Positions 14,709 to 43,538 of a stretch of DNA of 64,000 nt are shown in pieces. Below the pieces are notes generated by a model. That model was not told the DNA's origin. It ran no database searches and was given only the letters and a program-made list of their open reading frames with translations. This DNA comes from Pseudaquabacterium terrae. Its GTDB lineage: Bacteria; Pseudomonadota; Gammaproteobacteria; Burkholderiales; Burkholderiaceae_C. Every line of letters starts with the position of its first letter. Positions within the stretch are counted from its first letter, which is position 1. The position numbers and the translations under genes were made by a program. The stretch covers positions 682,001 to 746,000 of the forward strand of contig NZ_JABRWJ010000001.1 in assembly GCF_013266755.1 (NCBI RefSeq). Direction: 5' to 3'.

Positions 14709-14921
14709 ATGTTCAGGCGCTTCTACACCCACCCGCTCGCCCTCGGCTCGGCGATCGCGATCACCTTCCTGCTATTGCTCGGCGTCTCCCACCTGGGTGG
14801 CCGGGAAGGGGCCTACCACGTGCTGGCGCGCGCCAGCGACCAGGTGGCCCAGCAAGTGGTGATCGTCGGCAAGCGCTTTGTGCAGACGGTGGAAGTGATC
14901 GGCAAGAAGCTGCGCGACTGA
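14709..14921 (+). CDS. Small single-span membrane protein with V-x-V-x-G-K-R repeats (microprotein family, member 1)
   Basis: A 70-residue protein: a short basic N-terminus (MFRRFYTHPL), one membrane segment (about residues 10-27), a linker, then two 11-residue units, QQVVIVGKRFV and QTVEVIGKKLR. The C-terminus would be periplasmic if the N-terminus stays inside. Two more members with the same plan occur at 42780 and 43338. The repeat resembles the VVVTGSR-like strand at the start of TonB-dependent receptor plug domains, but no receptor follows. GACGGAGG lies before the ATG. I know no function. It converges with the AraC gene 20 bases on. Confidence 0.7.
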   Translation: MFRRFYTHPLALGSAIAITFLLLLGVSHLGGREGAYHVLARASDQVAQQVVIVGKRFVQTVEVIGKKLRD

Positions 14922-14941
14922 GCGCGGCGCACAGCGGGCAG

Positions 14942-15916
14942 TCAGCGCACCAGCACGGCCTGCCCGTACCCCTCCCGCCGGTAGACGCTCGGCGGCACGC
15001 CGAAGCGTTGTGCAAAAACGCGGCTGAAATGCGGCAGGCTGTTGAAGCCGCGTGCGAGTGCGATGTCGGTGATCGAACGGCTGGCCTGCGCCGGCTCGGC
15101 CAGGTCGCGGCGCACCGCTTCGAGCCGCTCGCGCAGCAGGTAGCCAGCCACGCCTTCGGGCTCCTCGGAGAACGCGTTGTAGAGCTGGCGCCGGCTGCAG
15201 CGCAGCGCGAGCGCGATGTCGTCGACGCTCAAGCCGGGATCGCCGAGCCGGTGCGCGACGAGCTGCTTGATCCGGTCGCGCAGTGCCTCGCGCTGCGTCA
15301 AGGCCGTTCCGCGGCCGGCCAGGTCCAGCAGCGACAGGTGCACCAGCTGCGTGATCGCCGCGCCGACGCCGCGCGCCGCTTCGTCGCCCATGTCCGGCAG
15401 CTCCTGGTAGGCGCTGCGCATCGTCTGCAGTGCGAGCCGCGCGATGCCGTGGCCACCGCCGAGCGGCCGCGCGACCAGCTCCGACAGAACCAGCCCGCGC
15501 TCGGCCAGGTCGGCCTTCGGCAGCATCACGATCAGGTGCTCGACCGGCTCCGGGTTCGCGACCGCATAGGTCTCGGTGGTGTCGTAGAGGCTCCATTCGC
15601 CGGGCCCGACCCAGGCTTGGCGCCCGAACTGCTCGACGCCCGCGCAGCCGCGCTGCGGCGCGACGATCTTCAAGTAGCCCTGGTCGCTCTTGCGCACGAG
15701 GTTCTGCGTGCGCATCACGCGGTGGCGGCCCGATTCCAACCGCGTCAGCACCACCGGGCCGGCACGGGTCGTGGCGATGCGGCCGTCGAAGACCGTGTCG
15801 CCGTAGAGGTCCGAGTCGAGGCCGCCGAACAGCTTCCAGACCCAGTCGCGCCAGTACGGCAGCTTGTCGCGCGCACTGACGTCGTCGGTGCTCATCATCG
15901 CGGTCGTGATCGCCAT
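14942..15916 (-). CDS. AraC-family transcriptional activator (FeaR-like)
   Basis: A 324-residue regulator: an N-terminal effector/dimerisation domain of the AraC_binding_2 type (about 1-190), then two helix-turn-helix motifs, visible as LSVDDIALALRCSRRQLYNAF and SITDIALARGFNSLPHFSRVF. The ATG at 15916 is preferred because GGGAG lies eight bases before it; the GTG at 15925 would abut the Shine-Dalgarno. It is divergent from a Liv-type transporter and aromatic aldehyde dehydrogenase operon, and the gap holds a two-copy direct repeat typical of AraC/XylS operators. The inferred effector is an aromatic compound. Confidence 0.88.
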   Translation of the reverse strand: MAITTAMMSTDDVSARDKLPYWRDWVWKLFGGLDSDLYGDTVFDGRIATTRAGPVVLTRLESGRHRVMRTQNLVRKSDQGYLKIVAPQRGCAGVEQFGRQAWVGPGEWSLYDTTETYAVANPEPVEHLIVMLPKADLAERGLVLSELVARPLGGGHGIARLALQTMRSAYQELPDMGDEAARGVGAAITQLVHLSLLDLAGRGTALTQREALRDRIKQLVAHRLGDPGLSVDDIALALRCSRRQLYNAFSEEPEGVAGYLLRERLEAVRRDLAEPAQASRSITDIALARGFNSLPHFSRVFAQRFGVPPSVYRREGYGQAVLVR

Positions 15917-16004
15917 CGCACGCACTCCCGAGGGCAGGTTCGCCGCGATTATGGGAAGCGGGCTGGCGCCGCAACGCTGCCGCTAGGGAAAGCTCGGGGC
16001 GGCG

Positions 16005-16042
16005 TGCACAAAACAGCAAGCCGGCGTGCATGGTCAAGCAAG
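16005..16042 (+). promoter_or_regulatory. AraC/XylS-type direct-repeat operator with -10 box downstream
   Basis: Two copies of TGCA-N6-AGCAAG begin at 16005 and 16027, exactly 22 bp apart. A candidate -10 box TACGAT lies at 16063-16068, and the downstream copy covers the place expected for the -35 box. This is how XylS/AraC-type activators sit at their promoters. The divergently encoded AraC protein is the obvious candidate to bind here and switch on the transporter operon starting at 16102. Confidence 0.65.
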
Positions 16043-16101
16043 ACGGCGGCGGCGCGGCTTCCTACGATGCATCACGTCCATCCCAACGACGAGGAGACAT
16101 C

Positions 16102-17328
16102 ATGGCCGCGCCGACGTCAGCGAAGACCGCATCCCAGCTCGTGAGCCCGTCCCGCCGCCGCGCCACGCAGGCGCTGGCCGCCGGCCTGGCCTGTCCTGCG
16201 CTGCTGCGCGCCGCCGAGCCGGCTGTGCGCATCGGCTACGCGATCGCCCGCACGGGCCCGTGGGCCGGCGGCGCGCAGGTCAGCCAGGAGCCGAACTACC
16301 TGCTGTGGGCCGAGACGGTGAACGCCGCCGGCGGCCTCGACGTCAAGGGCAAGAAGCGGCCGATCGAGCTGATCAGCTCCGACGACCGCAGCGACATCGA
16401 GACCTGCGTGCGCAGCTACGAGAAGCTGATGGGCAGCGACAAGGTCGACCTGGTGCTGCCGCCGTGGGGCTCGAACGCCAACTTCGCGGTCGCGCCGCTG
16501 GCCAACCGTTTTGGCTACCCGTTCGTGGCGCCGACCGCGCTGTCGAAGAAGCTGATCGAGATGAAGCTGCCGTACTTCTTCCTGATGCTGCAGCAGCCGG
16601 CGCCGATGACCACCGCGCTGGTCGACATGCTGAAGGCCAACGGCGCGAAGACCGCCGCGGTGATCTACGTCGACGACCTGTTCGGCCTGGAGAACTACGC
16701 GGCGCTGAAGGTCGCGCTGTCGGGCAGCGGCATCACGCTGGTCGAGGAGAAGAGTTATCCCGCCGGCGTCAAGGACCTGAGCCCGGTGCTGCGCAGCATC
16801 AAGGACAAGGCGCCCGACGCCTTCATCGGCTTCACCTACCCGCCCGACACCATCCTCGCCAGCAAGCAGAGCAAGGAGATCGGCTTCAACCCGAAATTCT
16901 TCTACGCCTCGGTGGGCACCGCGTTCCAGCTCTACAGGAACGTGATGACGCCGGCCGGCGCCGAGGGCGTGCTCGGCATGGGCTCGTGGAACGCCAAGAC
17001 CAGCTCAGGCGCGAAGGCCTACTTCGAGGCCCACACGAAGAAGTACGCCGGCAAGGAGCCCGACCGCTGGGCCTCGGGGGCGTGCTGGGCGGCGCTGGAG
17101 ATCCTGCAGGCCGGCGTCGCCCGGGTCGGGCTCGACCGCAAGGCGCTGCGCGACTACATCGCCAAGACCGAGCACAAGACCATCCTCGGACCGATCCGCT
17201 TCGAGGGCAGCGAGAACGTCGCGACGCCGGGCGCGGTGAGCCAGTGGCAGAACGGCGAGTTCGAGGTGGTCTGGCCGAAGAGCATTGCGACGGCCGCGCT
17301 GGTCCCCGCGAAGCCGGCCTGGAAGTGA
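16102..17328 (+). CDS. Branched-chain-amino-acid-type ABC transporter substrate-binding protein
   Basis: A 408-residue periplasmic receptor of the LivJ/HAAT family. The N-terminus carries SRRRATQALAAGLACPALL, a probable Tat signal. The mature part starts with VRIGYAIARTGPWAGGA, typical of the Peripla_BP_6 fold, and has the second-lobe segment AAVIYVDDLFGLENY. The ATG at 16102 has GAGGAG five bases upstream. It is the first gene of a complete transporter operon ending with an aromatic aldehyde dehydrogenase, so the ligand may be an aromatic acid or aldehyde precursor rather than an amino acid. Confidence 0.9.
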   Translation: MAAPTSAKTASQLVSPSRRRATQALAAGLACPALLRAAEPAVRIGYAIARTGPWAGGAQVSQEPNYLLWAETVNAAGGLDVKGKKRPIELISSDDRSDIETCVRSYEKLMGSDKVDLVLPPWGSNANFAVAPLANRFGYPFVAPTALSKKLIEMKLPYFFLMLQQPAPMTTALVDMLKANGAKTAAVIYVDDLFGLENYAALKVALSGSGITLVEEKSYPAGVKDLSPVLRSIKDKAPDAFIGFTYPPDTILASKQSKEIGFNPKFFYASVGTAFQLYRNVMTPAGAEGVLGMGSWNAKTSSGAKAYFEAHTKKYAGKEPDRWASGACWAALEILQAGVARVGLDRKALRDYIAKTEHKTILGPIRFEGSENVATPGAVSQWQNGEFEVVWPKSIATAALVPAKPAWK

Positions 17329-17335
17329 GTTGCGG

Positions 17336-18223
17336 ATGTCACTCGGCGCGTGGCTCGAACTGCTGGCTTCCGGCCTGATCAGCGGCGGCGTGTACGCGCT
17401 GGTCGCCCTCGGGCTGAACCTGCAGTACGGGCTGATGCGCATCATGAACATCTCGCACGGCGAGTTCCTGATGCTGGGCGCCTACGCCACCTGGGCGGCG
17501 ACGGTCGGGCTCGGGCTGTCGCCGCTCGTGATGCTGCCGGTGTCGTTCGTGCTGCTGGCCGCGCTCGGCCTCGTCGTGCACCGGCTGTGCTTCAGGCGGC
17601 TGGCCGCCAGCTCGCCGACGGTCGACATCTTCGAGGCGCGCAGCCTGATGGTCGGCTTCGGCCTGCTGTTCCTGGTGCAGAACTTCGCGTCGCTGGTCTG
17701 GGGCGGCGAGCTGCGCGGCTACGACTTCCTGACCATGCCGGTGGTGGTGCCGCTCACTTCGGGGGGCAGCCAGTTCGCCGCCAACAAGCTGCTGGTCTTC
17801 GCACTGGCGCTGGTCTTCTCCGGCGGACTGATCGCGTTGCTGCGGCTGACCTTGCTCGGCAAGGGCGTGCGCGCGCTGATGCAGTCGCCCACCGGCGCGC
17901 AGCTGGTCGGCATTCCGACCGAGCGGCTGCACCCGCTGATGTTCGGCCTCGGGCTCGGGCTGGCGGGTGTCGCCGGGTGTCTCCTGTCGATGATCGAGGC
18001 GATCACGCCGGCGATGGGTGAACCGTACACGGTGACGGCGCTGATCGTCATCACGCTCGGCGGCTTCGGCAGCATGGCCGGCAGCCTGGCGGGCGGACTG
18101 CTGCTGGGTGTCGTCGAAGCGCTGGGCATGCACTTCACGAGCCCGAGCCTGAAGATGCTGCTGTCCTACGGCGTGTTCATCGGCGTGCTGCTGTGGCGGC
18201 CGAACGGCCTGTTCAAGAAATGA
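17336..18223 (+). CDS. ABC transporter permease, LivH type
   Basis: A 295-residue inner-membrane permease with about eight hydrophobic segments. It begins with the LivH-type pattern LLASGLISGGVYALVALGLN followed by YGLMRIMNISHGEFLMLGAY. It starts eight bases after the receptor gene and overlaps the next permease gene by four bases (ATGA). It forms the membrane channel together with the LivM-type protein. Confidence 0.9.
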   Translation: MSLGAWLELLASGLISGGVYALVALGLNLQYGLMRIMNISHGEFLMLGAYATWAATVGLGLSPLVMLPVSFVLLAALGLVVHRLCFRRLAASSPTVDIFEARSLMVGFGLLFLVQNFASLVWGGELRGYDFLTMPVVVPLTSGGSQFAANKLLVFALALVFSGGLIALLRLTLLGKGVRALMQSPTGAQLVGIPTERLHPLMFGLGLGLAGVAGCLLSMIEAITPAMGEPYTVTALIVITLGGFGSMAGSLAGGLLLGVVEALGMHFTSPSLKMLLSYGVFIGVLLWRPNGLFKK

Positions 18224-19133
18224 TGCCGAAGCTCACCCCCGACACCCGGCGCGATGCGCTGATCCTCGTCGCCGCCACCGGCTGGCTGCTGGCACTGCCG
18301 GGCTACGCCAGCGAGTTCGTCACCTCGCTTGCCTTGAGCTGCCTGATGTACGCCGCGCTGGCGTCGAGCTGGTCGCTGTTCTGCGGCGCGACGCGCTACC
18401 TGTCGCTGGCCACCTCGGCCTTCTTCGGCATCGGCGCCTACGTCTGCGCGCTCGGCCTCGACACGCTGCCGTGGCCCGTGCTGATCGCCGCCGGCGCCGC
18501 GGCGGCCGCGCTCGTCGCCGCCATCATGGGCAGCGCGGTGCTGCACCTGCGCGGCACCTATTTCGCGGTGCTGACCTTCGGGATGACGGAGCTGATCCGC
18601 CATGCCGTCACCTACGGCGAGAAGCAGGTCGCCGGCACGGTCGGCCGCGTGCTGGCCAGCGTGCCGGAGCCGGGCACCGTCTACGTCACCGTGCTGCTGA
18701 TCGCGCTGACCGCGCTGCTGACGGCGATCGCCGTGCGCTCGAGTCGCTTCGGCCTGGCGCTGGCGGGCATCGGCGCCGACGAGCAGCGGGCGCAGACGCT
18801 GGGCGTCGATACGCGCCTGGTGAAGATCGCCGGCTTCGCACTGACCGCCGCTTTCGCCGGCGCCACCGGTGCGGCGATGGCGGTGCGCTGGACCTACATC
18901 GATCCGCACACCGTCTTCAACCCGTTCATCGGTTTCCAGACCGTGCTGATCGCGTTGATCGGCGGCGCATCGACCTTGTGGGGCCCGGTGATCGCAGCGG
19001 TGGTGTTCTCGCTGCTGGCCGAGGTGCTGCGGCTGCAGCTGCCGCAGCTGTACATGATGGTGCTGGGGGTGTTGTTGATCCTGTGCGTGCTGTACCTGCC
19101 GGGTGGCTTGGCTTCGTTGCGGTGGAGGGCCCG

Positions 19134-19137
<4 letters not shown>
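18220..19137 (+). CDS. ABC transporter permease, LivM type
   Basis: A 305-residue permease. LivM hallmarks include LATSAFFGIGAYVCA, the HLRGTYFAVLTFGMTELIR block and the C-terminal LIGGASTLWGPVIAAVVF. Two ATGs stand in tandem at 18220 and 18223; the first gives an ATGA overlap with the upstream stop. Its own stop overlaps the ATG of the first ATPase gene by four bases. The whole operon is therefore translationally coupled. Confidence 0.9.
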
Positions 19138-19867
<730 letters not shown>

Positions 19868-19868
<1 letters not shown>

Positions 19869-22090
19869 TGAAGACTGCCGACCTCCCGCTGGCCACCTCG
19901 ATGGCCGAACTGAAGATCGAAGGCCTCACAGCCGGTTACGGCGGCTTCGCGGTGCTGCGCGCGCTGTCGCTGCACGTGCGGCCGGGGCTGACCGTGATCC
20001 TCGGGCCGAACGGCGCCGGCAAGACCACCTTGCTGAAGGCGATCGCCGGCTTGCTGCCGCGCGAAGGACGCGTCCAGCTGGACGGCACCGAGCTGCCGCC
20101 GCTGCAGCCGGCGGAGAACGTGCGCCGCGGCCTCGCGCTGGTCGCCGAAGGGCGCCAGCTCTTTCCGCAGATGACGGTGATGGAAAACCTCGAGCTCGGC
20201 GGCTGGCTGCTGCCGAAGGCCGAACGGGCCACGCGCCTGGCGCAGGCGCTGCGCGACTTCCCGAAGCTGGCAGAACGTTCACGCCAGCTCGCCGGCACGA
20301 TGAGCGGCGGCGAGCAGCAGATGCTGGCCGTCGCGCGCGCCTTGATGTGCGCGCCGCGCCTGCTGATGCTCGACGAGCCCTCGCTCGGCCTCGCGCCGCG
20401 CATGGTCGACGAGCTGCTGGCGATCGTGCGGCGCATTGCCGACGCCGGCACCACCGTGCTGATGGTCGAGCAGAACGTGCGCAAGGCACTCGCCGTCGCC
20501 GACCGCGGCCACGTGCTCGAACGCGGCCGGCTCGTCGCCGGCGGGCCCGCGTCGCTGCTGGCGCGTTCGAGCGTCATCCGCCAGGCCTACCTCGGTGCCG
20601 CCGCGGCGCCGTCCTCATCCTCCCAGGAGCCCAAGATGTCCGATCTGTCGATGTTGATCAACGGCCTGGCCGTGCAGGCCGAAGGTGGCCGCTCGTTCGA
20701 GCGCCGCAATCCGCTCGACGGCAGCGTCGCGTCGCGCGCGCCGGCGGCGTCGACGGCCGATGCGCTGGCCGCCGTCGAAGCCGCGGCCGAGGCCTTCAAG
20801 AGCTGGAGCCAGACGGGGCCCGGCGAGCGCCGCGCGCTGCTGCTGAAGGCCGCTGCCGCGCTCGAAGCGAAAACACCGCAGTTCATCGAAGCCGTCGCCG
20901 CCGAGACCGGCGCGACCGCCATGTGGGCCGGCTTCAACGTGCACCTGGCCGCCGGCATGCTGCAGGAAGCCGCCGCGCTGACCACGCGCATCAGCGGCGA
21001 GGTGATCCCGAGCGACGTGCCGGGCTCGTTGGCGATGGGTGTGCGCCAGCCGGCCGGCGTCGTGCTCGGCATCGCGCCGTGGAACGCACCGATCATCCTC
21101 GGCGTGCGCGCCATCGCCGCGCCGCTGGCCTGCGGCAACACGGTGATCCTGAAAGGCAGCGAGAACTGCCCGCGCACGCATGGGCTGATCGCCGAGGCTT
21201 TTCAGGACGCCGGCTTCCCGCCCGGGGTGGTCAACTACCTGACCAATGCACCCGCCGACGCGGCCGCGCTGGTCGAGACCCTCGTCGCGCAACCGGCGGT
21301 GCGGCGCGTCAACTTCACCGGCTCGACGCGCATCGGCAAGCTGGTGGCGCTGACCTGCGCGAAGTACCTGAAGCCGGTGCTGCTGGAGCTCGGCGGCAAG
21401 GCGCCGCTGCTTGTGCTCGACGATGCCGACATCACCGATGCGGTCAACGCCGCGGCGTTCGGCTGCTTCGCGAACTCGGGCCAGATCTGCATGAGCACCG
21501 AACGGCTGATCGTCGATCAGAAGATCGCCGACGCCTTCGTCGACAAGTTCGTCGCCAAGGCCGGCGCGCTGCCGCTGGGCGATCCGCGCGGCAGCGATCC
21601 TGTCGTGCTGGGCAGCGTGATCGGCATGGCCACCGTCGAGCACTGCAATGCGCTGATCGACGACGCGTTGGCCAAGGGCGCGAAGCTGCTGTGCGGCGGC
21701 AAGGCGACCAGCACGCTGATGCCGGCGACCGTGCTCGACCGCGTGACGCGCGCCATGCGCATCTACCACGAGGAGACCTTCGGACCGGTCAAGTGCATCG
21801 TGCGCGTGGCCGACACCGAGGCCGCGATCGCCTGCGCCAACGACAACGACTACGGCCTCGCCGCCGCGGTGTTCGGCCGCGACATCGCACGCGCGATCAA
21901 CGTCGCGAAGCGCATCGAATCGGGCATCTGCCACGTCAACGCGCCGACCGTGCACGACGAGGCGCAGATGCCCTTCGGCGGCGTGAAGGGCTCGGGGCTC
22001 GGCCGCTTCGGCGGCGCGGCCGGCATCGCCGAATTCACCGACCTGCGCTGGATCACCGTGCAGACGACGCCGCGGCACTATCCGTTCTAG
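19868..22090 (+). CDS. LivF-type ATPase fused in frame to aromatic aldehyde dehydrogenase
   Basis: The frame runs 740 codons without a stop. Residues 1 to about 240 are a LivF ATPase (Walker A GPNGAGKTTLLKAIAG, signature MSGGEQQMLAVARAL, Walker B LLMLDEPSLGLAPRM). Residues about 241-256 form a linker, GAAAAPSSSSQEPK, and residue 257 begins a complete aldehyde dehydrogenase. I read the junction codon by codon and found no stop. An internal AGGAG and ATG at 20636 could also start the dehydrogenase separately. So the products may be a fusion, a free dehydrogenase, or both. LivF proteins usually end near residue 235-240, so a lost stop codon is the simple explanation. Confidence 0.8.
20636..22090 (+). 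CDS. Salicylaldehyde/vanillin-type aldehyde dehydrogenase (internal start within the LivF fusion frame)
   Basis: From the ATG at 20636, with AGGAG seven bases upstream, 484 residues give a normal-length NAD(P)-dependent aldehyde dehydrogenase. Motifs: GIAPWNAPIIL (cofactor site), [22 protein letters not shown] (general base) and catalytic cysteine in NSGQICMSTE. The style resembles salicylaldehyde and vanillin dehydrogenases (DoxF/NahF/Vdh group). Expected reaction: an aromatic aldehyde to its carboxylic acid. With an AraC regulator and an importer in the same unit, it probably handles an imported aromatic compound. The exact substrate is not decided by sequence. Confidence 0.85.
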   Translation: MSDLSMLINGLAVQAEGGRSFERRNPLDGSVASRAPAASTADALAAVEAAAEAFKSWSQTGPGERRALLLKAAAALEAKTPQFIEAVAAETGATAMWAGFNVHLAAGMLQEAAALTTRISGEVIPSDVPGSLAMGVRQPAGVVLGIAPWNAPIILGVRAIAAPLACGNTVILKGSENCPRTHGLIAEAFQDAGFPPGVVNYLTNAPADAAALVETLVAQPAVRRVNFTGSTRIGKLVALTCAKYLKPVLLELGGKAPLLVLDDADITDAVNAAAFGCFANSGQICMSTERLIVDQKIADAFVDKFVAKAGALPLGDPRGSDPVVLGSVIGMATVEHCNALIDDALAKGAKLLCGGKATSTLMPATVLDRVTRAMRIYHEETFGPVKCIVRVADTEAAIACANDNDYGLAAAVFGRDIARAINVAKRIESGICHVNAPTVHDEAQMPFGGVKGSGLGRFGGAAGIAEFTDLRWITVQTTPRHYPF

Positions 22091-22190
22091 CGGCCTGCCC
22101 GGCCCGGCTCCGGGCGAGCCCCTAGGCTCGCGACGAGGGCCCGCGCGTTAAGCTGCCAAGCCCCGTCTTGCAGTCCGGGGCGCAGGAGCG

Positions 22191-27100: not shown

Positions 27101-27287
27101 TGACGATCACCATCGGCAGGTCGATGTCGGGGAAGTTCTGCACCTTCATCGCCTTGAAGGCGATCAGGCCGGCGACGGTCAGCAGCAGGAACAGCAGCAC
27201 CGAGGGTATCGGGTTGCGGATCGACCAGGCGGAGACGTTGATGCCGCCGCTGACGCGCTCGGCGTGCGCGTGTTCGGCGTCGTTCAT
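24150..27287 (-). CDS. RND-family multidrug efflux permease (AcrB/HAE-1 type)
   Basis: A 1045-residue inner-membrane pump, the usual length for the family. The N-terminus shows a membrane helix and the NFPDIDLPMVIV porter start; the characteristic VGILVDDAIVEIENIMRH helix with the proton-relay Asp-Asp pair is present. A second half repeats the architecture (LIMLMGIATKNSILLVDYV). It is coupled by an ATGA overlap to the upstream membrane-fusion protein gene. No outer-membrane channel gene is nearby, so it would borrow a TolC-like protein. Substrates are unknown. Confidence 0.93.
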   Translation of the reverse strand: MNDAEHAHAERVSGGINVSAWSIRNPIPSVLLFLLLTVAGLIAFKAMKVQNFPDIDLPMVIVTAALPGAAPGQLETEVARKIENSVASVQGVKHLYTMVGDGVVSITVEFRLEKPVQEALDDVRSAVSRVRSDMPADLRDPVIAKADLAGMPILTYTVASKKMDDEALSWFVDNEVTKTLLAVRGVGAVARVGGVSREVRIELDPARLLALNVTAGDISRQLRQMQQDASGGRADIGGVEQSVRTLATVQSAEELARMEIPLSDGRRIRLDQVATVADTVAERRQAALLDGKPVVGFEISRSRGAGEIEVADGVKPALEALKARHPDITITEAFNFVDPAQENFDGSMILLYEGAALAVLVVWLFLRNWRATLVAAAALPLSAIPTFAAMYLLGFTLNGVTLISLSLVVGILVDDAIVEIENIMRHLAQGKTPYQAAMEAADEIGMAVIATTFTLIAVFLPTAFMTGIVGRFFVQFGWTAAIAVFVSLVVARMLTPMMAAYLLKPPTKPDRLPRWLQIYERWAAWCVRHRWWTMLGTAVFFFGSFALVPLLPTGFIPPDDLSQTQVTLTLPPGSTIQQTGASAEAALQILRKNPQVKQVYTAIGGGNSGADPFAAPGQADVRKATLTLNLTPRKDRPGLSKQQIEAQLREALTVLPGVRVKVAFGGSAEKYVLVLASDDGRALAEHAAKVERDLRTIPGVGSITSTSSLQRPELIVRPDFARMADLGVTSAGLADALRIATAGDYDQGLAKLNLAQRQVPVVVRLPAQARQDLELLARLPVPGAKGPVMLGNVATLAIDAGPAQIERYDRQRNVNFEIELNGQGLGEVEAKALALPSLQQLPPGISRASVGDAEAMGDLFAGFSMAMGAGVLCIYIVLVLLFKDFVQPITILAALVLSVPGAFLALFITHSPLSMPSMIGLIMLMGIATKNSILLVDYVVIARRDHGLNRWDALLDACRKRARPIVMTTIAMGAGMMPIALGWGVDPSFRSPMAIVVIGGLITSTFLSLLVIPVVFTFVDDVHGWFMARIRRSRGAQPAAAAAAG

Positions 27288-28384: not shown

Positions 28385-28481
28385 GGTGTGCGTGGCTATC
28401 CGGGGAACCACGGATGTTGACACGAGTGCGCAGGACAATCCCGTTGGCGGCGCGGGGCCTCGGGCTTACCGCATGGCGCCG

Positions 28482-30941: not shown

Positions 30942-30948
30942 ACTCTCT

Positions 30949-33129: not shown

Positions 33130-33233
33130 CGGGGCGGTAGGGGGCTTGATTGAATGACGACACGAGGCCGGCGCTGAAACGCCGGACTTGCAGGTGTCAT
33201 TTTTATCGGCTTTTGCCGCCGCCGCTTGAGGAC

Positions 33234-34484: not shown

Positions 34485-34501
34485 CGGCTGCCTCTCCCGG
34501 T

Positions 34502-36004: not shown

Positions 36005-36138
36005 TGCATGGGGCTCCGGGCAGCGGCAGTCGCCGGGTTGTACCCGCTCGGCCGTCCGGCGTCGGCTACCGATCGTGTCCGCTGCGGCGCATCTCCACAA
36101 GCCGAGCGGCGCGTGGCGCTCGAAAAACCGCTGCGCCG

Positions 36139-36642
36139 ATGCAGAATCAGCGCGTGGTCTCCAGTGCCGTCACCCTGCGACCTGCCCGCGCCGCCGATGC
36201 CCGCCAGATGGCGGCGATGTCGCGCGACCTGATCGAGGCCGGCCTGCCCTGGCGTTATCACACGGTGCACATGCTGCGGCTGATGGGTGACGACGAGACC
36301 ATCGCGCTGGTGGCGCACGATCACGCCGGCGTGCAGGGCTTCACGGTGATGCAGTTCGGCGACGAGCGCGCGCATCTGGTGCTGCTGGCGGTGCGGCCGC
36401 AGCAGCAGCGGCGCGGCATCGGCCGCCGGCTCGTCGAATGGCTGCTGGCGTCGGCGCGCGTCGCCGGCATCGCGGCGGTGCAGCTGGAGCTGCGCGCCGA
36501 CAATCCCGCGGCCTATCGCTTCTATCTCGGGCTCGGCTTCGACGACCTGCAGCTGCTGCCCGGTTACTACGACGGGTTGATCGCCGCGCGGCGCATGCGG
36601 CTGACGCTGCGGGAGCCCGCCGGCGGCGAGGGCGGCGGCTGA
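36139..36642 (+). CDS. GNAT-family N-acetyltransferase (RimI-like)
   Basis: A 167-residue acetyltransferase. Motif A, the acetyl-CoA pyrophosphate loop, is VRPQQQRRGIGRRLVEWLL (Q/RxxGxG/A pattern), and the motif B region AAYRFYLGLGFDD follows. It stands alone between a lipoprotein gene on the other strand and the receiver protein. There is no clear Shine-Dalgarno sequence. The acceptor could be an amino group on a protein or small molecule. Confidence 0.83.
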   Translation: MQNQRVVSSAVTLRPARAADARQMAAMSRDLIEAGLPWRYHTVHMLRLMGDDETIALVAHDHAGVQGFTVMQFGDERAHLVLLAVRPQQQRRGIGRRLVEWLLASARVAGIAAVQLELRADNPAAYRFYLGLGFDDLQLLPGYYDGLIAARRMRLTLREPAGGEGGG

Positions 36643-36785
36643 CGGGAACTCCGCCACGGATTGAGCCGGCGATCTGCGCTATTTCGTCGCATTGCCGCGC
36701 GGGCGCCGACGCTATGCTCGCCGGAACAGGTTCACCAGCGCCTGCAGCCGCCGCGCTGCGGGTCGCGATTTGAGGTTTCACGCCG

Positions 36786-38090
36786 ATGAACGAGTACTTG
36801 CTGTGGGCCCTGGCGGGCGTCCTGATGGTCTGGCTGCTGGCAGGCCGTCCCGGCTGGCCGCGCAAACGCGACGCCAGCGACACGCCCAGTCCACTGTCGC
36901 CGAGCATCCAGATCGACAGCGGCATTGCCGAGAACCAGGCCGAAGCCGAGGCCGAGCGCCAGCAGGCGGCGCGCCTCGAAGCCGAACGCGCCGAAGCCGC
37001 CCGCGCCGAGCGCGCGCGCGTCGACGCCGAGCGCCTGGAAGCGATCCGCCTCGAGAACGAACGCCTGGCCGCCGAAGCGGCGCGGGCCGAAGCAGAGCGC
37101 GCCGAAGCGGAGCGCGCCGAAGCGCAACGGCTGGAAGCAGAGCGCCTTGAAGCCGAACGGCTGGCCGCGCAGCAGCGCGAAGCCGAGCGCATCGAAGCGC
37201 TGCGGCTGGAAGCCGAACGGGTCGAGGCCGAGCGCGTCGAAGCTCAACGGCTCGAGGTTCAACGGCTCGAGGCAGAACGGCTGGCGGCGGAACGCGTCGA
37301 AGCGCAACGGCTGGAAGCGGCACGCATCGAGGCCGAGCGCCTTGAAGCGGCCCGGCTGGAATCGGAACGCCTGGCGGCCGAACGCCTGCATGCCGAGCGT
37401 GCCGAAGCCGCGCGCATTGAAGCAGCGCGCTTCGAAGCCGAACGCGCTGCCGAGGCCGCCCGCGTCGAAGCCGAACGCCGCGCCGCAGCGCAGGCCGAAG
37501 CCGCGCGCCGCGAAGCCGAACGCCTGCATGCCGAGCGGCTGCATGCCGAGCACCTGGCTGCCGAGCGCCGCGCCGCCGAAGAACGTGCCGCACACGAGGC
37601 TCGTGCGGCCGCTGAAGCGGCCGCGCGCCGCGAAGCCGCCGAACGCGCTGCCGCCGCCCCGGTGGCGCCGAAGCGCACGCTCGCGCCGAGCGAGACCCTG
37701 GTGATGGTCGCCGACGATTCGAAGGTCGTGCGCGTCAAGACCAGCCGGGCGCTCGCCAAGCACCAGTACCAGGTCACGCTGGCCGAGGATGGCATGGCCG
37801 CGGTGCGCCTCTTTGGCGACGCGCTGCCGCACGTGCTGATCACCGACGTCGAGATGCCCGGGATGGACGGGTTCGAGCTGACCCGCCATGTGCGCAGCAA
37901 CCCGCGCACCGCCCACATCCCGATCATCATGATCACCTCGTCCGACGAGAAGCACCGCAACGACGCGTTCGAAGCCGGCGTCAGCGTGCTGATGGGCAAG
38001 CCCTACGAAGAAGACGCGTTGATCGCCGAGATCCAGGCCGCGCTGTCGCGCGCGCCGGTCAGTGCGCCGGCGCTGGCGCTCGACGACTGA
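36786..38090 (+). CDS. Membrane-anchored response-regulator receiver with a long Glu/Arg/Ala-rich helix
   Basis: A 434-residue protein in three parts: an N-terminal membrane helix (about residues 4-20), about 240 residues of near-continuous A/E/R/L with a five-residue period (EAERL-type), and a CheY-like receiver (about 303-425). The receiver has the acidic pair D310/D311, phosphoacceptor D354 ([10 protein letters not shown]), the switch residue T384 and K405, so it looks active. The period of five rather than seven fits a stiff single alpha-helix better than a coiled coil. Membrane-tethered receivers with such a spacer are unusual. No kinase is adjacent. Confidence 0.88.
36939..37656 (+). 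repeat. In-frame 15-bp-type repeats encoding the Glu/Arg/Ala helix
   Basis: Degenerate repeats such as GAAGCCGAGCGCCTG recur every 15 bases within the receiver gene. They encode units like [10 protein letters not shown] and EAQRL. Such tracts are prone to slippage, so the helix may vary in length between strains. Confidence 0.75.
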
Positions 38091-38448
38091 AGCCGGCATC
38101 GGCCTTCAGCGCCCAATGCGTCCAGAGGCCGCCGAGCAGGTCCACCACGCCGAAGAGCACCAGCATCGGAGGGCCCAGGCCGAGCACGACGAAGGTCGTG
38201 AACAGCACGAAGACGGCGCAGCGCGTGTACACGGTGGCCACCAGGAACGGCCTGAGCCGGTATCGGCCCCCGACCCAGGCGAAGACGCCGATCATGAACG
38301 CGGTGACGCCGACGACGCGGAACCAGACGTCGGTGGTCGTCGGCATCTGAAGCGCCGACAGCACCCCGTTCGGGGCCACGATCACCAGGCCACCGATCAA
38401 GAACAGGTAGACGGCGAATACCTGGGCGCTGAGCGCAGAGCGGGACAT
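38059..38448 (-). CDS. Small four-helix membrane protein, unknown function
   Basis: A 129-residue protein with about four hydrophobic segments ([68 protein letters not shown]). I do not recognise a named family, though similar short proteins are common. It lies 32 bases after the DCC protein gene on the same strand and may share its transcript. Its 3' end overlaps the convergent receiver gene by 32 bases. Confidence 0.7.
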
Positions 38449-38480
38449 GTCTTGCCTTTCGCGTGGGAGGTTGATAGCGG

Positions 38481-38966
38481 TCAAAGGACGCGGCCTGCCG
38501 GCGCTGCCGGGGGCGCGCCACGCTCGCATGCGTCGTCGCGGCAGCGCGACCGCCGCGCCGCATGGTGCGCGGCCAGACTCGACACGTAGGGCGCGATCCG
38601 ATGCAGCCCCAGGCTCGACAGCGCGTGGCGGTGGCGCACGACCCACGGATAGAAGCGCTCGGTGAAGCGGCGCGACAGCGGATGCGTCCACGCGGTGGCG
38701 ATCGCGTCGAGCCCGAGCGTGCCGTACAGCAGCCCGAAGGCGTCGACGCCGATGTGCCAGGCGCCCGCCGGCTCGCGCACGTGCAGGGCTTCGAGCATCG
38801 CCGCGCGGGTGATGCCGTCGGCACGATAGGGCGTGTCGTCGAAGTCCGGCGCCGAGCAGTCGATCAGCTCGATCCAGTCGTCGTGGTCCAGCGCCTTCAG
38901 GCTGTGCATCTCCGCGGCGCAGAGCCGGCATGAGGCGTCGTAGAACACCTGCAGTCGATCGGTCAC
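38481..38966 (-). CDS. DCC-family (DUF393) thiol-disulfide oxidoreductase-like protein
   Basis: A 161-residue protein beginning VFYDASCRLCAAEM, which contains the family's D-x-x-C-x-x-C motif near residue 9. The GTG at 38966 is chosen because AAGGAG lies seven bases upstream. The family has a thioredoxin-like fold and is thought to act on disulfides, without a proved substrate. The gene follows the GbsR-like regulator gene on the same strand and has a copy of half its operator upstream, so it is probably a target. Confidence 0.8.
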   Translation of the reverse strand: MTDRLQVFYDASCRLCAAEMHSLKALDHDDWIELIDCSAPDFDDTPYRADGITRAAMLEALHVREPAGAWHIGVDAFGLLYGTLGLDAIATAWTHPLSRRFTERFYPWVVRHRHALSSLGLHRIAPYVSSLAAHHAARRSRCRDDACERGAPPAAPAGRVL

Positions 38967-38981
38967 AATTTCTCCTTCCGA

Positions 38982-39003
38982 AATTTCTGTCAAGAGAGAA
39001 GCA
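38982..39003. promoter_or_regulatory. Degenerate second copy of the GbsR-like operator
   Basis: The left arm AATTTCTGTC and spacer AA match the perfect operator at 39668-39689, and the right arm reads GAGAGAAGCA with four mismatches. It lies 15 bases upstream of the DCC gene start, and includes TTGACA on the minus strand. Confidence 0.55.
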
Positions 39004-39041
39004 AGTGGACGGACGAGTGCCTTGTGATGTGCTCGCAGCCT

Positions 39042-39644
39042 TTACTCGCCCTTGCCTCGAACGAGCGCCTGGATGCGCGCGCCGAGCTTCATGATCTTCA
39101 TCAGCGTCTCGGGCGGCATGCGCAGCATCTCGTCGCCCCAGGACGACAGCGTTTCCATCAGCGTCAGCGTCTGCGCGATGCGCTGGCGGCTCGCCGCCGG
39201 TTCGAGCGCGATGTCGGGATGCGCCAGGCACTCGCGCAGCACCCCCGCGGTGGGGTCGAATTCACGCGCCTTGCGCTCGCGCACCACGGTGCGGAACAGC
39301 TCCCAGACATCGCCCTGCGCCTCGAAGTGGTCGCGCCGGTCGCCGAGCAGGTGGACGACGCGCACCAGCCCCCAGCTCTGCAGCTCCTTCAGGCTGTTGC
39401 TGACGTTCGAACGCGCGACGACCAGCGTCTCGACGATCTCGTCGGCATGCATCGGCCGCGCGGCGATGAACAGCAGCGCGTGGATCTGGCCGACCGTGCG
39501 GTTGACGCCCCAGCGTGAACCCATCTCGCCCCAGTGCAGCACGAAGCGCTGCGACACCGGCGTGAGCCGCGACGGCGGCGCAGCGGGCGGCTCGGGCGCC
39601 GGCGCGGGGGGTGGCAGTGCGCCGGTGACGTCCTCGTTGGCCAT
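39042..39644 (-). CDS. GbsR/MarR-like winged-helix transcriptional regulator
   Basis: A 200-residue regulator (COG1510 type). After a Pro/Ala-rich N-terminus of about 27 residues comes a winged helix: VGQIHALLFIAARPMHADEI, then the recognition helix region VVARSNVSNSLKELQSWGLV and a wing with LLGDRRDHFEA. Related proteins control glycine betaine or membrane-lipid genes. The promoter carries a perfect inverted repeat over its TTGACA box, consistent with autorepression. With TTGACA at 39674-39679 and TACGAT at 39652-39657, transcription would begin at or next to the ATG, so the mRNA may be leaderless. Confidence 0.82.
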   Translation of the reverse strand: MANEDVTGALPPPAPAPEPPAAPPSRLTPVSQRFVLHWGEMGSRWGVNRTVGQIHALLFIAARPMHADEIVETLVVARSNVSNSLKELQSWGLVRVVHLLGDRRDHFEAQGDVWELFRTVVRERKAREFDPTAGVLRECLAHPDIALEPAASRQRIAQTLTLMETLSSWGDEMLRMPPETLMKIMKLGARIQALVRGKGE

Positions 39645-39667
39645 GGCGGCGATCGTAGGCTTTCCAT

Positions 39668-39689
39668 AATTTCTGTCAAGACAGAAATT
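39668..39689. promoter_or_regulatory. Perfect inverted-repeat operator in the gbsR-like/sugar dehydrogenase divergent region
   Basis: Arms AATTTCTGTC and GACAGAAATT are perfect reverse complements around a two-base AA spacer. The minus-strand -35 box TTGACA (39674-39679) lies inside it. On the plus strand a TTGATG at 39688-39693, 17 bases before GACTAT, could be the sugar dehydrogenase promoter. The low GC of this element stands out in its surroundings. Confidence 0.75.
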
Positions 39690-39749
39690 GATGCTGATGC
39701 GAGGCGTTGCGACTATCCTGGCCGGCCGTCTTGCTGCCGAGTCCTTTCC

Positions 39750-40880
39750 ATGCTGGCCTTCGTTCGCCGCCGGGTCCTTGCCCTCGCCGTCCCGCTGCTG
39801 ATGGGCAGCGCCGCGGCGCTCGCCGCCGACTTGCCGCTGCAGAAGATCGAGCTGCCGCCCGGCTTCTCGATCGAGCTGCTGGCGCGGGTGCCGAACGCGC
39901 GCCAGATGGCGCTCGGCGAACGCTCCGGCGGCGGCCACGTGCTCTATGTCGGTTCGATGGGCGAAGGCAAGGTGCATGCGCTGGAGCTCGATGCGCAGGG
40001 CCGCGCCGGCAAGCTGCACGTCGTCGCCAGCGGGCTGAAGATGCCGGTGGGCGTCGCGCTGCGCGACGGTGCGCTCTACATCAGCGCGGTCAGCCGCATC
40101 CTGCGGCTCGACGACATCGCGCGGCGCCTGGCCGACCCGCCGGCGCCGAAGGTGGTGCGCGATGACCTGCCGAGCGAAACGCACCACGGCTGGAAGTTCA
40201 TCGGCTTCGGTCCCGACGGCTGGCTCTACGTGCCGGTCGGTGCGCCATGCAACATCTGCGAGTCCGACCCCGACCGCTACGCGACGATCCTGCGCATGCA
40301 GCCCGACGGCTCGAAGCTCGAGACCTTCGCGCGCGGCGTGCGCAATAGCGTCGGCTTCGACTGGCATCCGGCAACACGCGAGCTGTGGTTCAGCGAAAAC
40401 GGCCGCGACATGCTCGGCGACGAGGTGCCGCCCGACGAGCTGAACCATGCACCGCGCGCCGGCATGCACTTCGGCTACCCGTACTGCCATGGCGGCGCGC
40501 TGCCCGATCCGCAGTTCGGCGCCAAGCGGCCGTGCAGCGATTTCACGCCGCCGGCGCAGCCGCTGGGCCCGCACGTCGCGGCGCTCGGCCTGCGCTTCTA
40601 CACCGGCACGCAGTTCCCCGAGGCCTGGCGCGGCCAGATCTTCATTGCCGAGCACGGTTCATGGAACCGCAGCAAGCGCATCGGCTACCGCATCACCAGC
40701 GTGCGGCTCGAGGGCAACCGCGCGGTCGCCTACACGCCATTCGCCACCGGCTGGTTGCAAGGCGAATCGCCGTGGGGCCGGCCGGCCGACGTGCTGGTGG
40801 CGCCGGACGGTTCGCTGCTGGTCTCGGACGACCACGCCGATGCGATCTATCGCATCCGCCACACCCGGCCGGCGCGCTGA
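39750..40880 (+). CDS. Exported PQQ-dependent sugar dehydrogenase (sorbosone dehydrogenase-like)
   Basis: A 376-residue periplasmic protein with a signal peptide (MLAFVRRRVLALAVPLLMG to about ALAAD). The propeller carries family blocks ETHHGWKFIGFGPDGWLYV, VRNSVGFDWHP, GMHFGYPYCHGG and HGSWNRSKRIGYRI. Related proteins oxidise aldose sugars such as L-sorbosone with PQQ. It differs from the lipoprotein paralogue at 34502 in lacking the lipid anchor and Ig-like domain. Divergent from the GbsR-like gene, it may share its operator. The next gene, dadA, starts directly after its stop. Confidence 0.85.
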   Translation: MLAFVRRRVLALAVPLLMGSAAALAADLPLQKIELPPGFSIELLARVPNARQMALGERSGGGHVLYVGSMGEGKVHALELDAQGRAGKLHVVASGLKMPVGVALRDGALYISAVSRILRLDDIARRLADPPAPKVVRDDLPSETHHGWKFIGFGPDGWLYVPVGAPCNICESDPDRYATILRMQPDGSKLETFARGVRNSVGFDWHPATRELWFSENGRDMLGDEVPPDELNHAPRAGMHFGYPYCHGGALPDPQFGAKRPCSDFTPPAQPLGPHVAALGLRFYTGTQFPEAWRGQIFIAEHGSWNRSKRIGYRITSVRLEGNRAVAYTPFATGWLQGESPWGRPADVLVAPDGSLLVSDDHADAIYRIRHTRPAR

Positions 40881-42134
40881 ATGAAGATCCTGATCCTCGG
40901 CAGCGGCGTCATCGGCAGCACCGCGGCCTGGTACCTGGCGCGCGCCGGCCACGAGGTCGAGGTGCTCGAGCGCCGGGCCGGTCCCGCGCTCGAGACCAGC
41001 TTCGCCAACGCCGGCGAAGTCTCGCCCGGCTATTCCGCGCCGTGGGCCGGCCCCGGCGTGCCGGTCAAGGCGATCAAGTGGCTGCTGATGCAGCACAGCC
41101 CGCTGGTCATCAAGCCGATGCTCGACCCGGCGATGTGGCGCTGGGGCATCTCGATGCTGCGCAATTGCACCGAGGCACGTTACCGGATCAACAAGGCGCG
41201 CATGGTGCGGCTGGCCGAGTACAGCCGCGATTGCCTGATCGCCCTGCGCGCCGAGACCGGCATCCGCTACGACGAGCGCATGCAAGGCACGCTGCAGCTG
41301 TTTCGCACGCAGGCGCAGCTCGACGGCACCGCGAAGGACGTCGAGATCCTGAAGCAATACGGCGTGCCTTATCAACTGCTCGACCGCAGCGGCTACCTGA
41401 AGTACGAGCCGGCGCTCGAATCGCAGCAGCACAAGTTCGTCGGCGCGCTGCGGCTGCCGGGCGACGAGACCGGCGACTGCTTCCTGTTCAGCACTGCGAT
41501 CGCGCAGCTGGCCCAGCAGGCCGGCGCGCGCTTTCGCTTCGGCGTCGACGTGCAGTCGCTGACGCGTCAAGGCAGCGTCATCGACGCGGTGCAGACGAAC
41601 ACCGGCGCGGTGCGCGCCGACCGCGTGCTGGTCGCGCTCGGCAGCTACTCGACGCCGCTGTTGAAGCCATTGGGCTTGCGGCTGCCGGTCTACCCGGTCA
41701 AGGGTTTCTCGATCACCGTGCCGATCACCGATGCCGCGCAGGCGCCGGAGTCGACGATCATGGACGAGACGCACAAGGTCGCGGTGACGCGGCTGGGCGA
41801 CCGCATCCGCGTCGGCGGCACCGCGCAGCTGTCGGGCTACGACCTGGAGCTCAATCCACGCCGGCGCGAGACGCTGGAGTTCGTCGTCGGCGACCTGTTC
41901 CCGCACGGCGGCGACATCGCCCAGGCCAGCTTCTGGACCGGGCTGCGGCCGATGACCCCCGACGGCACGCCGCTGGTCGGGCCGACGCCGATCCAGAACC
42001 TGTGGCTCGCGACCGGCCACGGCACGCTCGGCTGGACCATGGCCGCCGGCACCGGCGCGCTGCTGGCCGACTGGATGTCCGACCGCCGGCCGGCGATCGA
42101 CACCGAGGGGCTGACGCTGGCGCGCTACGATTGA
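40881..42134 (+). CDS. dadA: D-amino acid dehydrogenase, DadA-type FAD subunit
   Basis: A 417-residue flavoprotein. The FAD-binding motif [20 protein letters not shown] is at the N-terminus, followed by the DadA-typical [19 protein letters not shown]. The C-terminal part has [16 protein letters not shown] and [12 protein letters not shown]. Members oxidatively deaminate D-amino acids such as D-alanine and pass electrons to the respiratory chain from the inner face of the membrane. The gene abuts the sugar dehydrogenase stop with no spacer. No alanine racemase is nearby. Confidence 0.92.
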
Positions 42135-42170
42135 GCGCCGCGCCTTTCAAGCGCTAGGAAGGATTCACGG

Positions 42171-42761
42171 ATGAGTGTGCAGGACCGCGTGCGCGTGAAG
42201 GACGTCCGCTTGCTGTCGGACAACTGGTACACGCTGAAGACGACGACCTTCGACTGGCGCCGCAGCGACGGCCGCTGGCAGGAGTGCAAACGGGAAACCT
42301 ACGACCGCGGCAACGGCGCAGTGCTGCTGCTGTACAACCGCGCGCGGCGCACGGTGATCCTGACGCGGCAGTTCCGCTACCCGGCCTACGTCAACGGCCA
42401 CGACGGCCTGCTGATCGAGGCCCCGGCGGGGCTGCTCGACGACGCGTCGCCGGAGGAGTGCATCCGCGCCGAGGCGCAGCAGGAAGTGGGCTTTCACGTG
42501 CGCACGCCGCGCAAGGTGTTCGAGGCCTTCATGAGCCCGGGCTCGGTGACCGAGCGGCTGCACTTCTTCGTCGCCGAATACGATCCGGCGGACCGCACCG
42601 GCTCGGGCGGCGGGCTCGAGGAGGAAGGCGAGGACATCGAGGTGCTGGAGCTCGGCGTCGACGCGGCGCTGGCGATGGTCGAGCGCGGCGAAATCTGCGA
42701 TGCGAAGACGATCATGCTGCTGCAGCACGCGGCGCTGTTTCTGCTGCCAACGCCGCGCTGA
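42171..42761 (+). CDS. Nudix hydrolase, NudK/ADP-sugar pyrophosphatase-like, with altered Nudix box
   Basis: A 196-residue protein like E. coli NudK (GDP-mannose hydrolase). The region around the Nudix box reads [20 protein letters not shown]. The canonical REUxEE core appears as AEAQQE, so the first of the paired glutamates is Gln, and the earlier conserved Glu is Ser. Reduced or different activity is possible. [18 protein letters not shown], conserved downstream in this subfamily, is present. AGGAAGGA lies before the ATG. Confidence 0.85.
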
Positions 42762-42779
42762 TCTTCGGGCGCTGCCTCA

Positions 42780-43055
42780 TCAGGTCCGCGGCGCGCGCTT
42801 AGCCGTCACGAACACCTGCTGCGGCGCGCGCTGACCCATCACCGTCACGCGTTGCGGCGCGGGATGGCCGACCACCATCACGCGCTGCGGCGCGGGTTCG
42901 GCCTGCGCCAGCGCCAACGCCTCCTCGGCGGTGGCCCGCTCGGTCTCGGCGAGCACGCCGATGCCGGCCAGCACCATCAGCGTCATCATGGTCGCGGCGC
43001 CGAGTGCGGCGAGGCGTTCTCGAAGGCTGGTCTGCGGGGCTTGCGGGTGGTTCAT
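42780..43055 (-). CDS. Small single-span membrane protein with three 11-residue repeats (microprotein family, member 2)
   Basis: A 91-residue protein. After a short cytoplasmic start comes one membrane span (LGAATMMTLMVLAGIGVLA), an Ala/Glu-rich linker, and three tandem units: APQRVMVVGHP, APQRVTVMGQR, APQQVFVTAKR. The DNA repeats every 33 bases. Of two adjacent ATGs, the one at 43055 has the better spacing (six bases) from AGGAG. It shares the layout and, upstream, the promoter elements of the gene at 43338. I know no function; the tail would lie in the periplasm. Confidence 0.7.
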   Translation of the reverse strand: MNHPQAPQTSLRERLAALGAATMMTLMVLAGIGVLAETERATAEEALALAQAEPAPQRVMVVGHPAPQRVTVMGQRAPQQVFVTAKRAPRT

Positions 43056-43098
43056 CATCGGCTCCTGGGTCTTGGCTGCTATCACTTGGGATGGTGAG

Positions 43099-43167
43099 AC
43101 TGTAGGCAGCGCCCTCGCCTGCCGCCACCGGTTTGCGACGAGCCGTCGTGCAACGGGGTCGAAGTGC
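43099..43167 (-). promoter_or_regulatory. Promoter of microprotein 2: TACAGT box and two 21-bp-spaced direct repeats
   Basis: On the minus strand, GCACTTCGAC (43158-43167) and ACGGCTCGTC (43137-43146) begin exactly 21 bp apart; the second ends 32 bases before TACAGT (43099-43104). No -35 consensus is seen. The distance and surrounding bases are the same as in the promoter of microprotein 3. Two-turn spacing suggests a dimeric activator of the LytTR type. Confidence 0.6.
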
Positions 43168-43288
43168 AGCGGCAGCCACTTCAAGCGCGCGCGCCCTGCG
43201 CGGTTGCGTCTTGTCGGTCACCGTCTTGACGCGTCTTTTGAACGCTATTGGCCTGCGACGCCGCCTGCAAATGGCCGGCCCCAAAAGC

Positions 43289-43315
43289 AACGAGCCCCGC
43301 ATCGCGGGGCTCGTT
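43289..43315 (-). terminator. Intrinsic terminator of microprotein gene 3
   Basis: A perfect 12-bp stem, AACGAGCCCCGC against GCGGGGCTCGTT, with a three-base loop. On the minus strand it is followed by GCTTTTGG. It lies 22 bases after the stop of the 43338 gene. Confidence 0.8.
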
Positions 43316-43337
43316 CGCTCGAGGTCGTACGGCGTGA

Positions 43338-43538
43338 TCAGGACTGCGTGCTGCGCTTGCCGACGATCACCACCACCTGCTGCGCAGGCTGCGCCTCGGC
43401 TTGCGCCATCAGTGCGTCGGCATGCCGGTGGTCGGCGATCTGGGAGATGCCACCGAGCACCGCCAGCGTCATCACCGCGGCAACGCCGAACGAGGCGGCT
43501 TGTTGGCGCAGGGTGGTGGACAGGTTCAGGCGGGTCAT
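43338..43538 (-). CDS. Small single-span membrane protein ending in VVIVGKR (microprotein family, member 3)
   Basis: A 66-residue protein. The basic N-terminus (MTRLNLSTTLRQQ) leads to one membrane span (FGVAAVMTLAVLGGISQIA), then a short Ala/Gln-rich linker and a single repeat unit, QQVVVIVGKRS. AGGAG lies seven bases before the ATG. A strong terminator follows, and the upstream promoter has three phased repeats, so it is an independent, regulated gene. It is clearly a paralogue of the 42780 gene and related to the 14709 gene. Confidence 0.72.
   Translation of the reverse strand: MTRLNLSTTLRQQAASFGVAAVMTLAVLGGISQIADHRHADALMAQAEAQPAQQVVVIVGKRSTQS

What the first reader, a model, noticed from the sequence alone, without database searches (positions are those of the whole stretch)
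14709..43538. A family of three short membrane proteins with 11-residue V-x-V-x-G-K-R units
Genes at 14709, 42780 and 43338 encode 66-91-residue proteins with one N-terminal membrane helix and one to three C-terminal units of the form (A/P)QQVxVxGKR, every 11 residues. The units recall the VVVTGSR strand of TonB-dependent receptors. They may be periplasmic ligands for a protein that recognises this strand, or assemble by strand addition. I know of no description of such a family.
Basis: partly seen in the sequence, partly recalled or inferred. Interest (0 to 1): 0.75.

Follow-up and report, generated by a model that had tools for sequence, protein, structure and literature searches.

The report
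Co-regulated small membrane proteins of Burkholderiales
The three small proteins are real and belong to a family of tiny membrane proteins, for which we found no description, that occurs in several bacterial genera; six of the seven in this genome share one DNA control element, which elsewhere also sits in front of a drug-efflux pump operon, but what the proteins do is still a guess.

Summary
In detail: 14709-14921(+), 42780-43055(-) and 43338-43538(-) encode 70, 91 and 66 aa, each with one hydrophobic segment and V-x-V units. This genome has seven such genes; profile searches find the family in 18 of 21 genus genomes and 42 of 399 family genomes, often multi-copy. What members share is the hydrophobic segment and, in about half, a rigid promoter, TTCGTCGCA-N28-CTANAGT, with half-sites 21 and 41 bp upstream. 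In 28 genomes the promoter occurs 47 times (reversed control 2): 32 before family members, 7 before an RND-efflux adaptor gene. So these are small membrane or exported proteins of one regulon. The repeats resemble AlgR/LytTR sites; the regulator is unidentified. The tail looks like TonB boxes of receptors in the same genome, but TonB binding is untested and a single-sequence model makes the tail helical. Best guess: MgrB/AcrZ-like membrane regulators; a TonB decoy role is a bold minority reading.

The parts
14709..14921 (+). 70-aa family member P0001, two tail units (QQVVIVGKR, QTVEVIGKK)
   Evidence: dN/dS 0.18 against its G003 counterpart; profile hit E 8e-23
14665..14672 (+). CCTATAGT, -10-like element of P0001; no TTCGTCGCA element (this subgroup lies outside the promoter family)
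   Evidence: sequence; CCTATAGT also in L072 and L042; strict promoter absent
42780..43055 (-). 91-aa family member P0002, three 11-residue tail units
   Evidence: counterpart in G003
43099..43142 (-). promoter of P0002: CTCGTCGCA-N28-CTACAGT
   Evidence: (G000:C1:725099-725141)
43338..43538 (-). 66-aa family member P0003, one tail unit
43579..43622 (-). promoter of P0003: CTCGTCGCA-N28-CTACAGT
   Evidence: (G000:C1:725579-725621)
43635..43664 (-). two further half-sites of the P0003 promoter, CTCGTCACG and CTCGTCGCG, at 21-bp steps upstream
   Evidence: sequence, offset analysis

Best explanation
The genes encode small exported or inner-membrane proteins (cytoplasmic N-terminus, one hydrophobic helix, periplasmic tail of 16-56 residues). 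Six of the seven in this genome, and about half of those read elsewhere, have a dedicated promoter that looks activator-dependent: tandem 9-bp sites at about 21-bp steps upstream of a weak -35, then CTANAGT at a fixed distance. The activator is probably an AlgR/LytTR-type response regulator (an AraC-type one is not excluded), and the same kind of promoter precedes an RND efflux adaptor-pump operon, so the regulon probably answers envelope or toxic-compound stress. The proteins most likely act in the membrane through the conserved helix, binding and tuning a larger membrane protein of the same response (sensor kinase or pump), as MgrB does with PhoQ and AcrZ with AcrB. The V-x-V-x-G-x-R tail of some members would be an extra periplasmic docking strand. 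Shown: family, coding constraint, promoter architecture, co-targets. Inferred: topology, regulator class, stress role, partner, tail function.
For: Family: profile hits in 18 of 21 genus genomes and 42 of 399 family genomes, 21 of 141 genera. Conserved hydrophobic segment: T19 invariant and A15, L23, A30 in at least 90% of 31 aligned members, more than a plain signal peptide should need (my judgement). N-region charge at least +1, median +2, counting the amino group, in 111 of 111; tail charge median 0. Promoter: spacer exactly 28 in 34 of 111 upstream regions, 0 for spacers 22-27 and 29-34, 0 in reversed regions; half-sites at -21 and -41 (z 4.3, 4.4); 47 hits against 2 control hits in 28 genomes. 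Co-target: an adaptor gene follows the paired site in 9 of 9 loci read, this genome included; Pfam checked for two adaptors and one AcrB-family pump. AlgR core CCGTTCGTC and the LytTR habit of direct repeats about 12 bp apart: PMC4064291, passages; nine LytTR genes in the genome. MgrB: PMC10576120, abstract and outline. AcrZ: PMC7267776, start of abstract in a listing.
Against: No partner, expression or localisation data. I saw no LytTR gene beside the family loci or RND operons that I read (by eye, from the starts of translations), so no regulator is tied to the sites; 21-bp direct repeats also fit AraC-type regulators (recalled). Up to 10 paralogues per genome with fast-changing tails is unlike MgrB or AcrZ. 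51 of 110 members with enough upstream DNA lack the strict promoter regex, the 14709 subgroup among them. 110 of 111 have a small-x-small pattern near the end of the hydrophobic segment (a loose test), so the segment may be a cleaved signal peptide.
Confidence: 0.4

Rival explanations
1. TonB-box mimicry: the tail is a membrane-tethered or released TonB-box peptide that binds the TonB C-terminal domain by strand addition and lowers or redirects TonB-dependent uptake when the promoter is on.
For: Tail core in 49 of 111 members against 4.9 shuffled, 42 of them 3-4 residues from the C-terminus. Receptors of the same genome read ETVVVTGMR, QQRVEVIGGR, PLQTVVITGSPR before their plug; 13 of 30 loci have the exact core. 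Tails such as LQTIIVTGKRI and TQTVVITAKR in g231 look closer still. The FhuA TonB box pairs with TonB strand beta3: PMC11658791, passages.
Against: 62 of 111 members lack the core. In receptors the box is N-terminal, here it is C-terminal. Single-sequence AlphaFold2 makes the tail of P0001 helical, block pLDDT 84-94 over residues 41-70. A V-x-V-x-G-x-R strand is not proof of TonB binding.
Confidence: 0.15
2. Secreted peptide signals or bacteriocin-like peptides: the conserved segment is a cleaved signal peptide, the variable tail the mature peptide, and an AlgR/LytTR system controls and perhaps senses it, as in Gram-positive peptide quorum sensing (recalled).
For: Conserved leader with variable tail, many paralogues, LytTR-like direct repeats, [RKQH][AGSTV]-COOH in 62 of 111.
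Against: No processing, export or kinase genes noticed at the five loci read (by eye); tails within a subfamily are conserved; co-regulation with an efflux pump points to stress.
Confidence: 0.15
3. The proteins are spurious or neutral ORFs on a regulated small RNA; the transcript, not the peptide, is functional.
For: Short genes; leader of 34-67 nt in 57 promoters; no known protein family. Rfam was not searched.
Against: dN/dS 0.14-0.61 in 8 of 8 pairs, conserved residues and C-terminal motif.
Confidence: 0.05
4. Small membrane-active peptides (type I toxin-like or membrane-damaging) induced under stress.
For: Short, hydrophobic, multi-copy, shared promoter.
Against: Hydrophilic tails of 16-56 residues; antisense partners were not searched for.
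Confidence: 0.08

Closest known systems
AcrZ (E. coli), small partner of the RND pump AcrB
   Same: small single-helix protein; here an RND operon has the same kind of promoter as the small proteins
   Different: no convincing match to a known family; up to 10 divergent copies per genome; long tail; no binding shown
MgrB, inhibitor of PhoQ
   Same: small membrane protein of a stress regulon (MgrB's induction by PhoP is recalled)
   Different: kinase and regulator unknown here; tail motif and paralogue number differ
TonB box of TonB-dependent receptors
   Same: V-x-V-x-G-x-R core, found in 13 of 30 receptor loci of the same genome
   Different: C-terminal on a small protein instead of N-terminal on a receptor; absent from 62 of 111 members
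AlgR/LytTR-controlled promoters
   Same: TTCGTC core and direct repeats, 9-bp sites with 12-bp spacing (PMC4064291 passages)
   Different: three half-sites; regulator not identified; AraC-type sites have similar spacing (recalled)

Membership tests
AlgR/LytTR-controlled promoter | imperfect direct repeats about 12 bp apart | tested here: met
   half-site score peaks at -21 (9 + 12 bp) and -41 in 57 non-redundant promoters, z 4.3 and 4.4; exact TCRTC at -21 in 25 of 57
AlgR/LytTR-controlled promoter | 9-bp core like CCGTTCGTC | tested here: inconclusive
   consensus TTCGTCGCA shares TTCGTC (PMC4064291 passages); the flanking CCG is not constant
AlgR/LytTR-controlled promoter | bound and activated by a LytTR regulator | not testable with these tools
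   nine LytTR genes exist, none tied to the sites
Small regulatory membrane proteins (MgrB/AcrZ kind) | under about 100 aa with a single membrane helix | tested here: met
   up to 91 aa; mean hydropathy of the best 19-mer at least 1.6 in 98 of 111; helix 7-28 in the model of P0001
Small regulatory membrane proteins (MgrB/AcrZ kind) | binds a larger membrane protein | not testable with these tools
   none
Small regulatory membrane proteins (MgrB/AcrZ kind) | sequence homology to a named small-protein family | tested here: not met
   31 members: only one or two members match unrelated families at E 0.002-0.007, cut-offs not printed there; not claimed as MgrB or AcrZ homologues
TonB box | short V-x-V strand preceding a plug domain at a receptor N-terminus | tested here: not met
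   the motif is C-terminal in a small protein
TonB box | sequence like the boxes of the same genome | tested here: met
   49 of 111 tails and 13 of 30 receptor loci share the core (receptor loci read on both strands, the 13 each have a sense match)
TonB box | binds the TonB C-terminal domain | not testable with these tools
   single-chain prediction only; tail modelled as helix without an alignment

The most novel reading that the evidence does not exclude
A stress regulon of Sphaerotilaceae-type Burkholderiales displays TonB-box mimics on small membrane anchors: when the activator fires, the cell raises an RND efflux pump and at the same time fills the periplasm with one- to three-box peptides that occupy TonB and shut the TonB-dependent entry routes used by siderophores, antibiotics and bacteriocins.
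Probability: 0.12. Interest if true: 0.88.

Novelty: new variant of a known kind. Interest (0 to 1): 0.6.

Why it matters
Small membrane proteins are hard to find and to assign. Here a rigid promoter, shared with an efflux operon, marks much of a family across several genera and gives a handle on its regulator and signal. If the TonB-box reading were right, it would be a new way to close the TonB-dependent uptake route under stress. The question (is the partner TonB, a kinase or the pump?) is small and direct.

Tried and rejected
Pfam and NCBIfam: nothing at a cut-off for the three proteins; for 31 members only OppC_N (2 members, best E 0.004), PRK13383, a Shiga-toxin B-subunit model and aEF-1 beta (1 member each, E 0.002-0.007), which disagree with each other and were taken as chance and not followed. 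A DNA pattern for the tail unit found one unrelated place, control 2. The order-wide profile search found one genome besides this one (G412, two neighbouring weak members), so the family looks narrow; only the best 15 candidates per genome were scored, so absences there are soft. No shared neighbours were seen in five loci read; the 14709 gene does follow an AMP-ligase gene in G000 and G018, and in G003 judging by the alternate frame of the same gene, but not visibly in L043 and L061. Relaxing the promoter in this genome to two mismatches added four sites, no more than control (8+3 against 4+3). With gaps of 20-40 the promoter gave 11 hits in 40 genomes, all with spacer 28, but the reversed control gave 17 hits (0 in this genome), so I lean on the fixed-spacer searches. 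The paired half-site pattern gave 47 hits against 12 control hits in 30 genomes, so part of those 47 are chance. The regex fixes the spacer, so that call says nothing about spacing. My notebook gives 48 and about 14 for; the recounts are 47/12 and 47/2. The terminator scan of 42500-43900 gave one match, on the + strand, and no sigma-70 consensus promoter. Rfam, PHROGs, PADLOC, PDB and fold searches were not run. No transcript or proteome data were available. Literature: VVVTGKR 0 papers, LytTR with RND efflux, small proteins or Burkholderiales (81 papers, 15 listed), TonB box with peptide, small protein and periplasmic terms (50, 12 listed), TonB box + decoy (9 listed), small protein, TonB, small ORFs, Rubrivivax (12, 10 listed), Aquabacterium + LytTR 0 papers: no listed title or abstract start describes this family; the library lacks most subscription papers.
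Full report
Observation. The three genes exist as described: 70, 91 and 66 codons. Units are spaced by 11 residues in the 70- and 91-aa proteins; the 66-aa protein has one unit. No Pfam or NCBIfam model reaches its cut-off.

Family. BLAST in the same 8.04-Mb genome finds three more genes with the unit (two encode the identical 59-aa protein) and, weakly (E 0.14), a seventh with the same first half but no unit; a profile confirms all seven. The profile of six members hits 18 of 21 genomes of the genus, 12 of 12 good ones. A profile of 31 members hits 42 of 399 genomes of the family at E 0.01 (35 of 350 good ones; 21 of 141 genera), weak single hits included, and 2 of 399 genomes of the order at E 0.001, this one included. 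In the fetched stretches a local profile search lists 113 rows of 20 bits or more; 111 distinct proteins remain after one chance row is dropped.

What is constant. The hydrophobic segment is conserved in sequence (T19 invariant; A15, L23, A30 at least 90% of 31). The N-region carries +1 to +5 (median +2) counting the amino group, the tail is neutral (median 0), which by the positive-inside rule (recalled) puts the tail in the periplasm. A small-x-small pattern near the segment's end in 110 of 111 would allow signal-peptide cleavage, but the test is loose. Coding constraint: dN/dS 0.18 for the 14709 gene against G003 and 0.14-0.61 over 8 pairs.

What varies. It ends 3-4 residues before the C-terminus in 42 of 111 (shuffled 0.36). 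So it is a C-terminal motif of some branches, not the hallmark of the family.

Promoter. Upstream of six of the seven genes in this genome lies YTCGTCGCA-N28-CTACAGT, found 7 times in 8.04 Mb with none for the reversed pattern; the seventh site precedes a MocR-like gene (label recalled). With gaps of 20-40 allowed in 40 genomes, 11 of 11 hits had a gap of 28, though the reversed control had 17 hits in other genomes. Across 111 upstream regions the fixed motif occurs at spacer 28 in 34 and at 22-27 or 29-34 in none, and in none of the reversed regions; a looser form occurs in 75. The strict regex is met by 59 of 110. In 57 non-redundant promoters the same 9-mer recurs at 21 and 41 bp upstream. 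The 14709 subgroup lacks it and has CCTATAGT or CCTATATT instead.

Other targets. TCRTCGCA-N28-CTANANT: 47 sites in 28 genomes, control 2. By my reading precede family members, 7 an RND adaptor gene, 2 GntR-like/ABC operons (GntR label recalled; ABC confirmed for one), 2 a subtilase (Pfam-checked for one), 1 a DUF2807 protein, 1 an ABC-like gene (by eye), 1 the MocR-like gene and 1 unclear. A 391-427-aa adaptor reading frame follows the paired half-sites in 9 of 9 loci read, in three genera, this genome included, where the spacer is 29; HlyD-type Pfam models match two adaptors and the AcrB-family model matches one pump, other pumps were read by eye. In g288 the adaptor's -10 is weaker (CACACT). 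A PspC-like protein (label recalled) follows a paired site in G015. This composition points to envelope or toxic-compound stress; that is inference.

Regulator. Direct repeats about 12 bp apart are the LytTR habit, and AlgR's core is CCGTTCGTC (PMC4064291, passages); the same paper says that AlgR's own sites need not be spaced by 12 bp. The genome has nine LytTR genes; I saw none beside the family or pump loci read (by eye). AraC-type activators also use 21-bp direct repeats (recalled), so the class is likely, not shown.

TonB resemblance. This genome has 39 plug domains; 30 loci were read. Segments before the plug read ETVVVTGMR, QQRVEVIGGR, TQQVEVIGN, PLQTVVITGSPR; 13 of 30 match the exact tail core (both strands were scanned, and two extra antisense matches fell in loci already counted). 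TonB boxes pair with TonB by strand addition (PMC11658791, passages). The resemblance is real but short, and the single-sequence model of P0001 makes its tail helical, so docking to TonB stays a hypothesis.

Mechanism. Most likely: small N-in membrane proteins of a stress regulon that tune a larger membrane protein, as MgrB (PMC10576120, abstract and outline) or AcrZ (PMC7267776, start of abstract). Confidence 0.4 for this mechanism; about 0.95, by my judgement, that the family and the shared promoter are real.

Noticed in passing
L267 (G000:C45:43413-43442), L266, L189, L191, L193, L195, L180, L181, L238: An RND adaptor gene follows paired half-sites of the same promoter in 9 of 9 loci read, three genera, the window's genome included.
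   Followed up: partly
L257/L269, L270, L271, L264, L265, P0005 in L192: Single further targets of the promoter or of paired sites: GntR-like/ABC operons, a subtilase, a DUF2807 protein, a PspC-like protein.
   Followed up: partly
window 12959-14921: The 14709 gene directly follows an AMP-ligase (malonyl-CoA synthetase-like, recalled) gene; the same neighbour is seen in G018 and, by its alternate frame, in G003.
   Followed up: partly
family tails, 111 proteins: 62 of 111 members end in [RKQH][AGSTV]-COOH, with or without the V-x-V motif; meaning unknown.
   Followed up: no
leaders of family genes: CATCG occurs in the last 75 nt before the start codon in 84 of 111 upstream regions, often as CCATCGAC just after the -10.
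   Followed up: no
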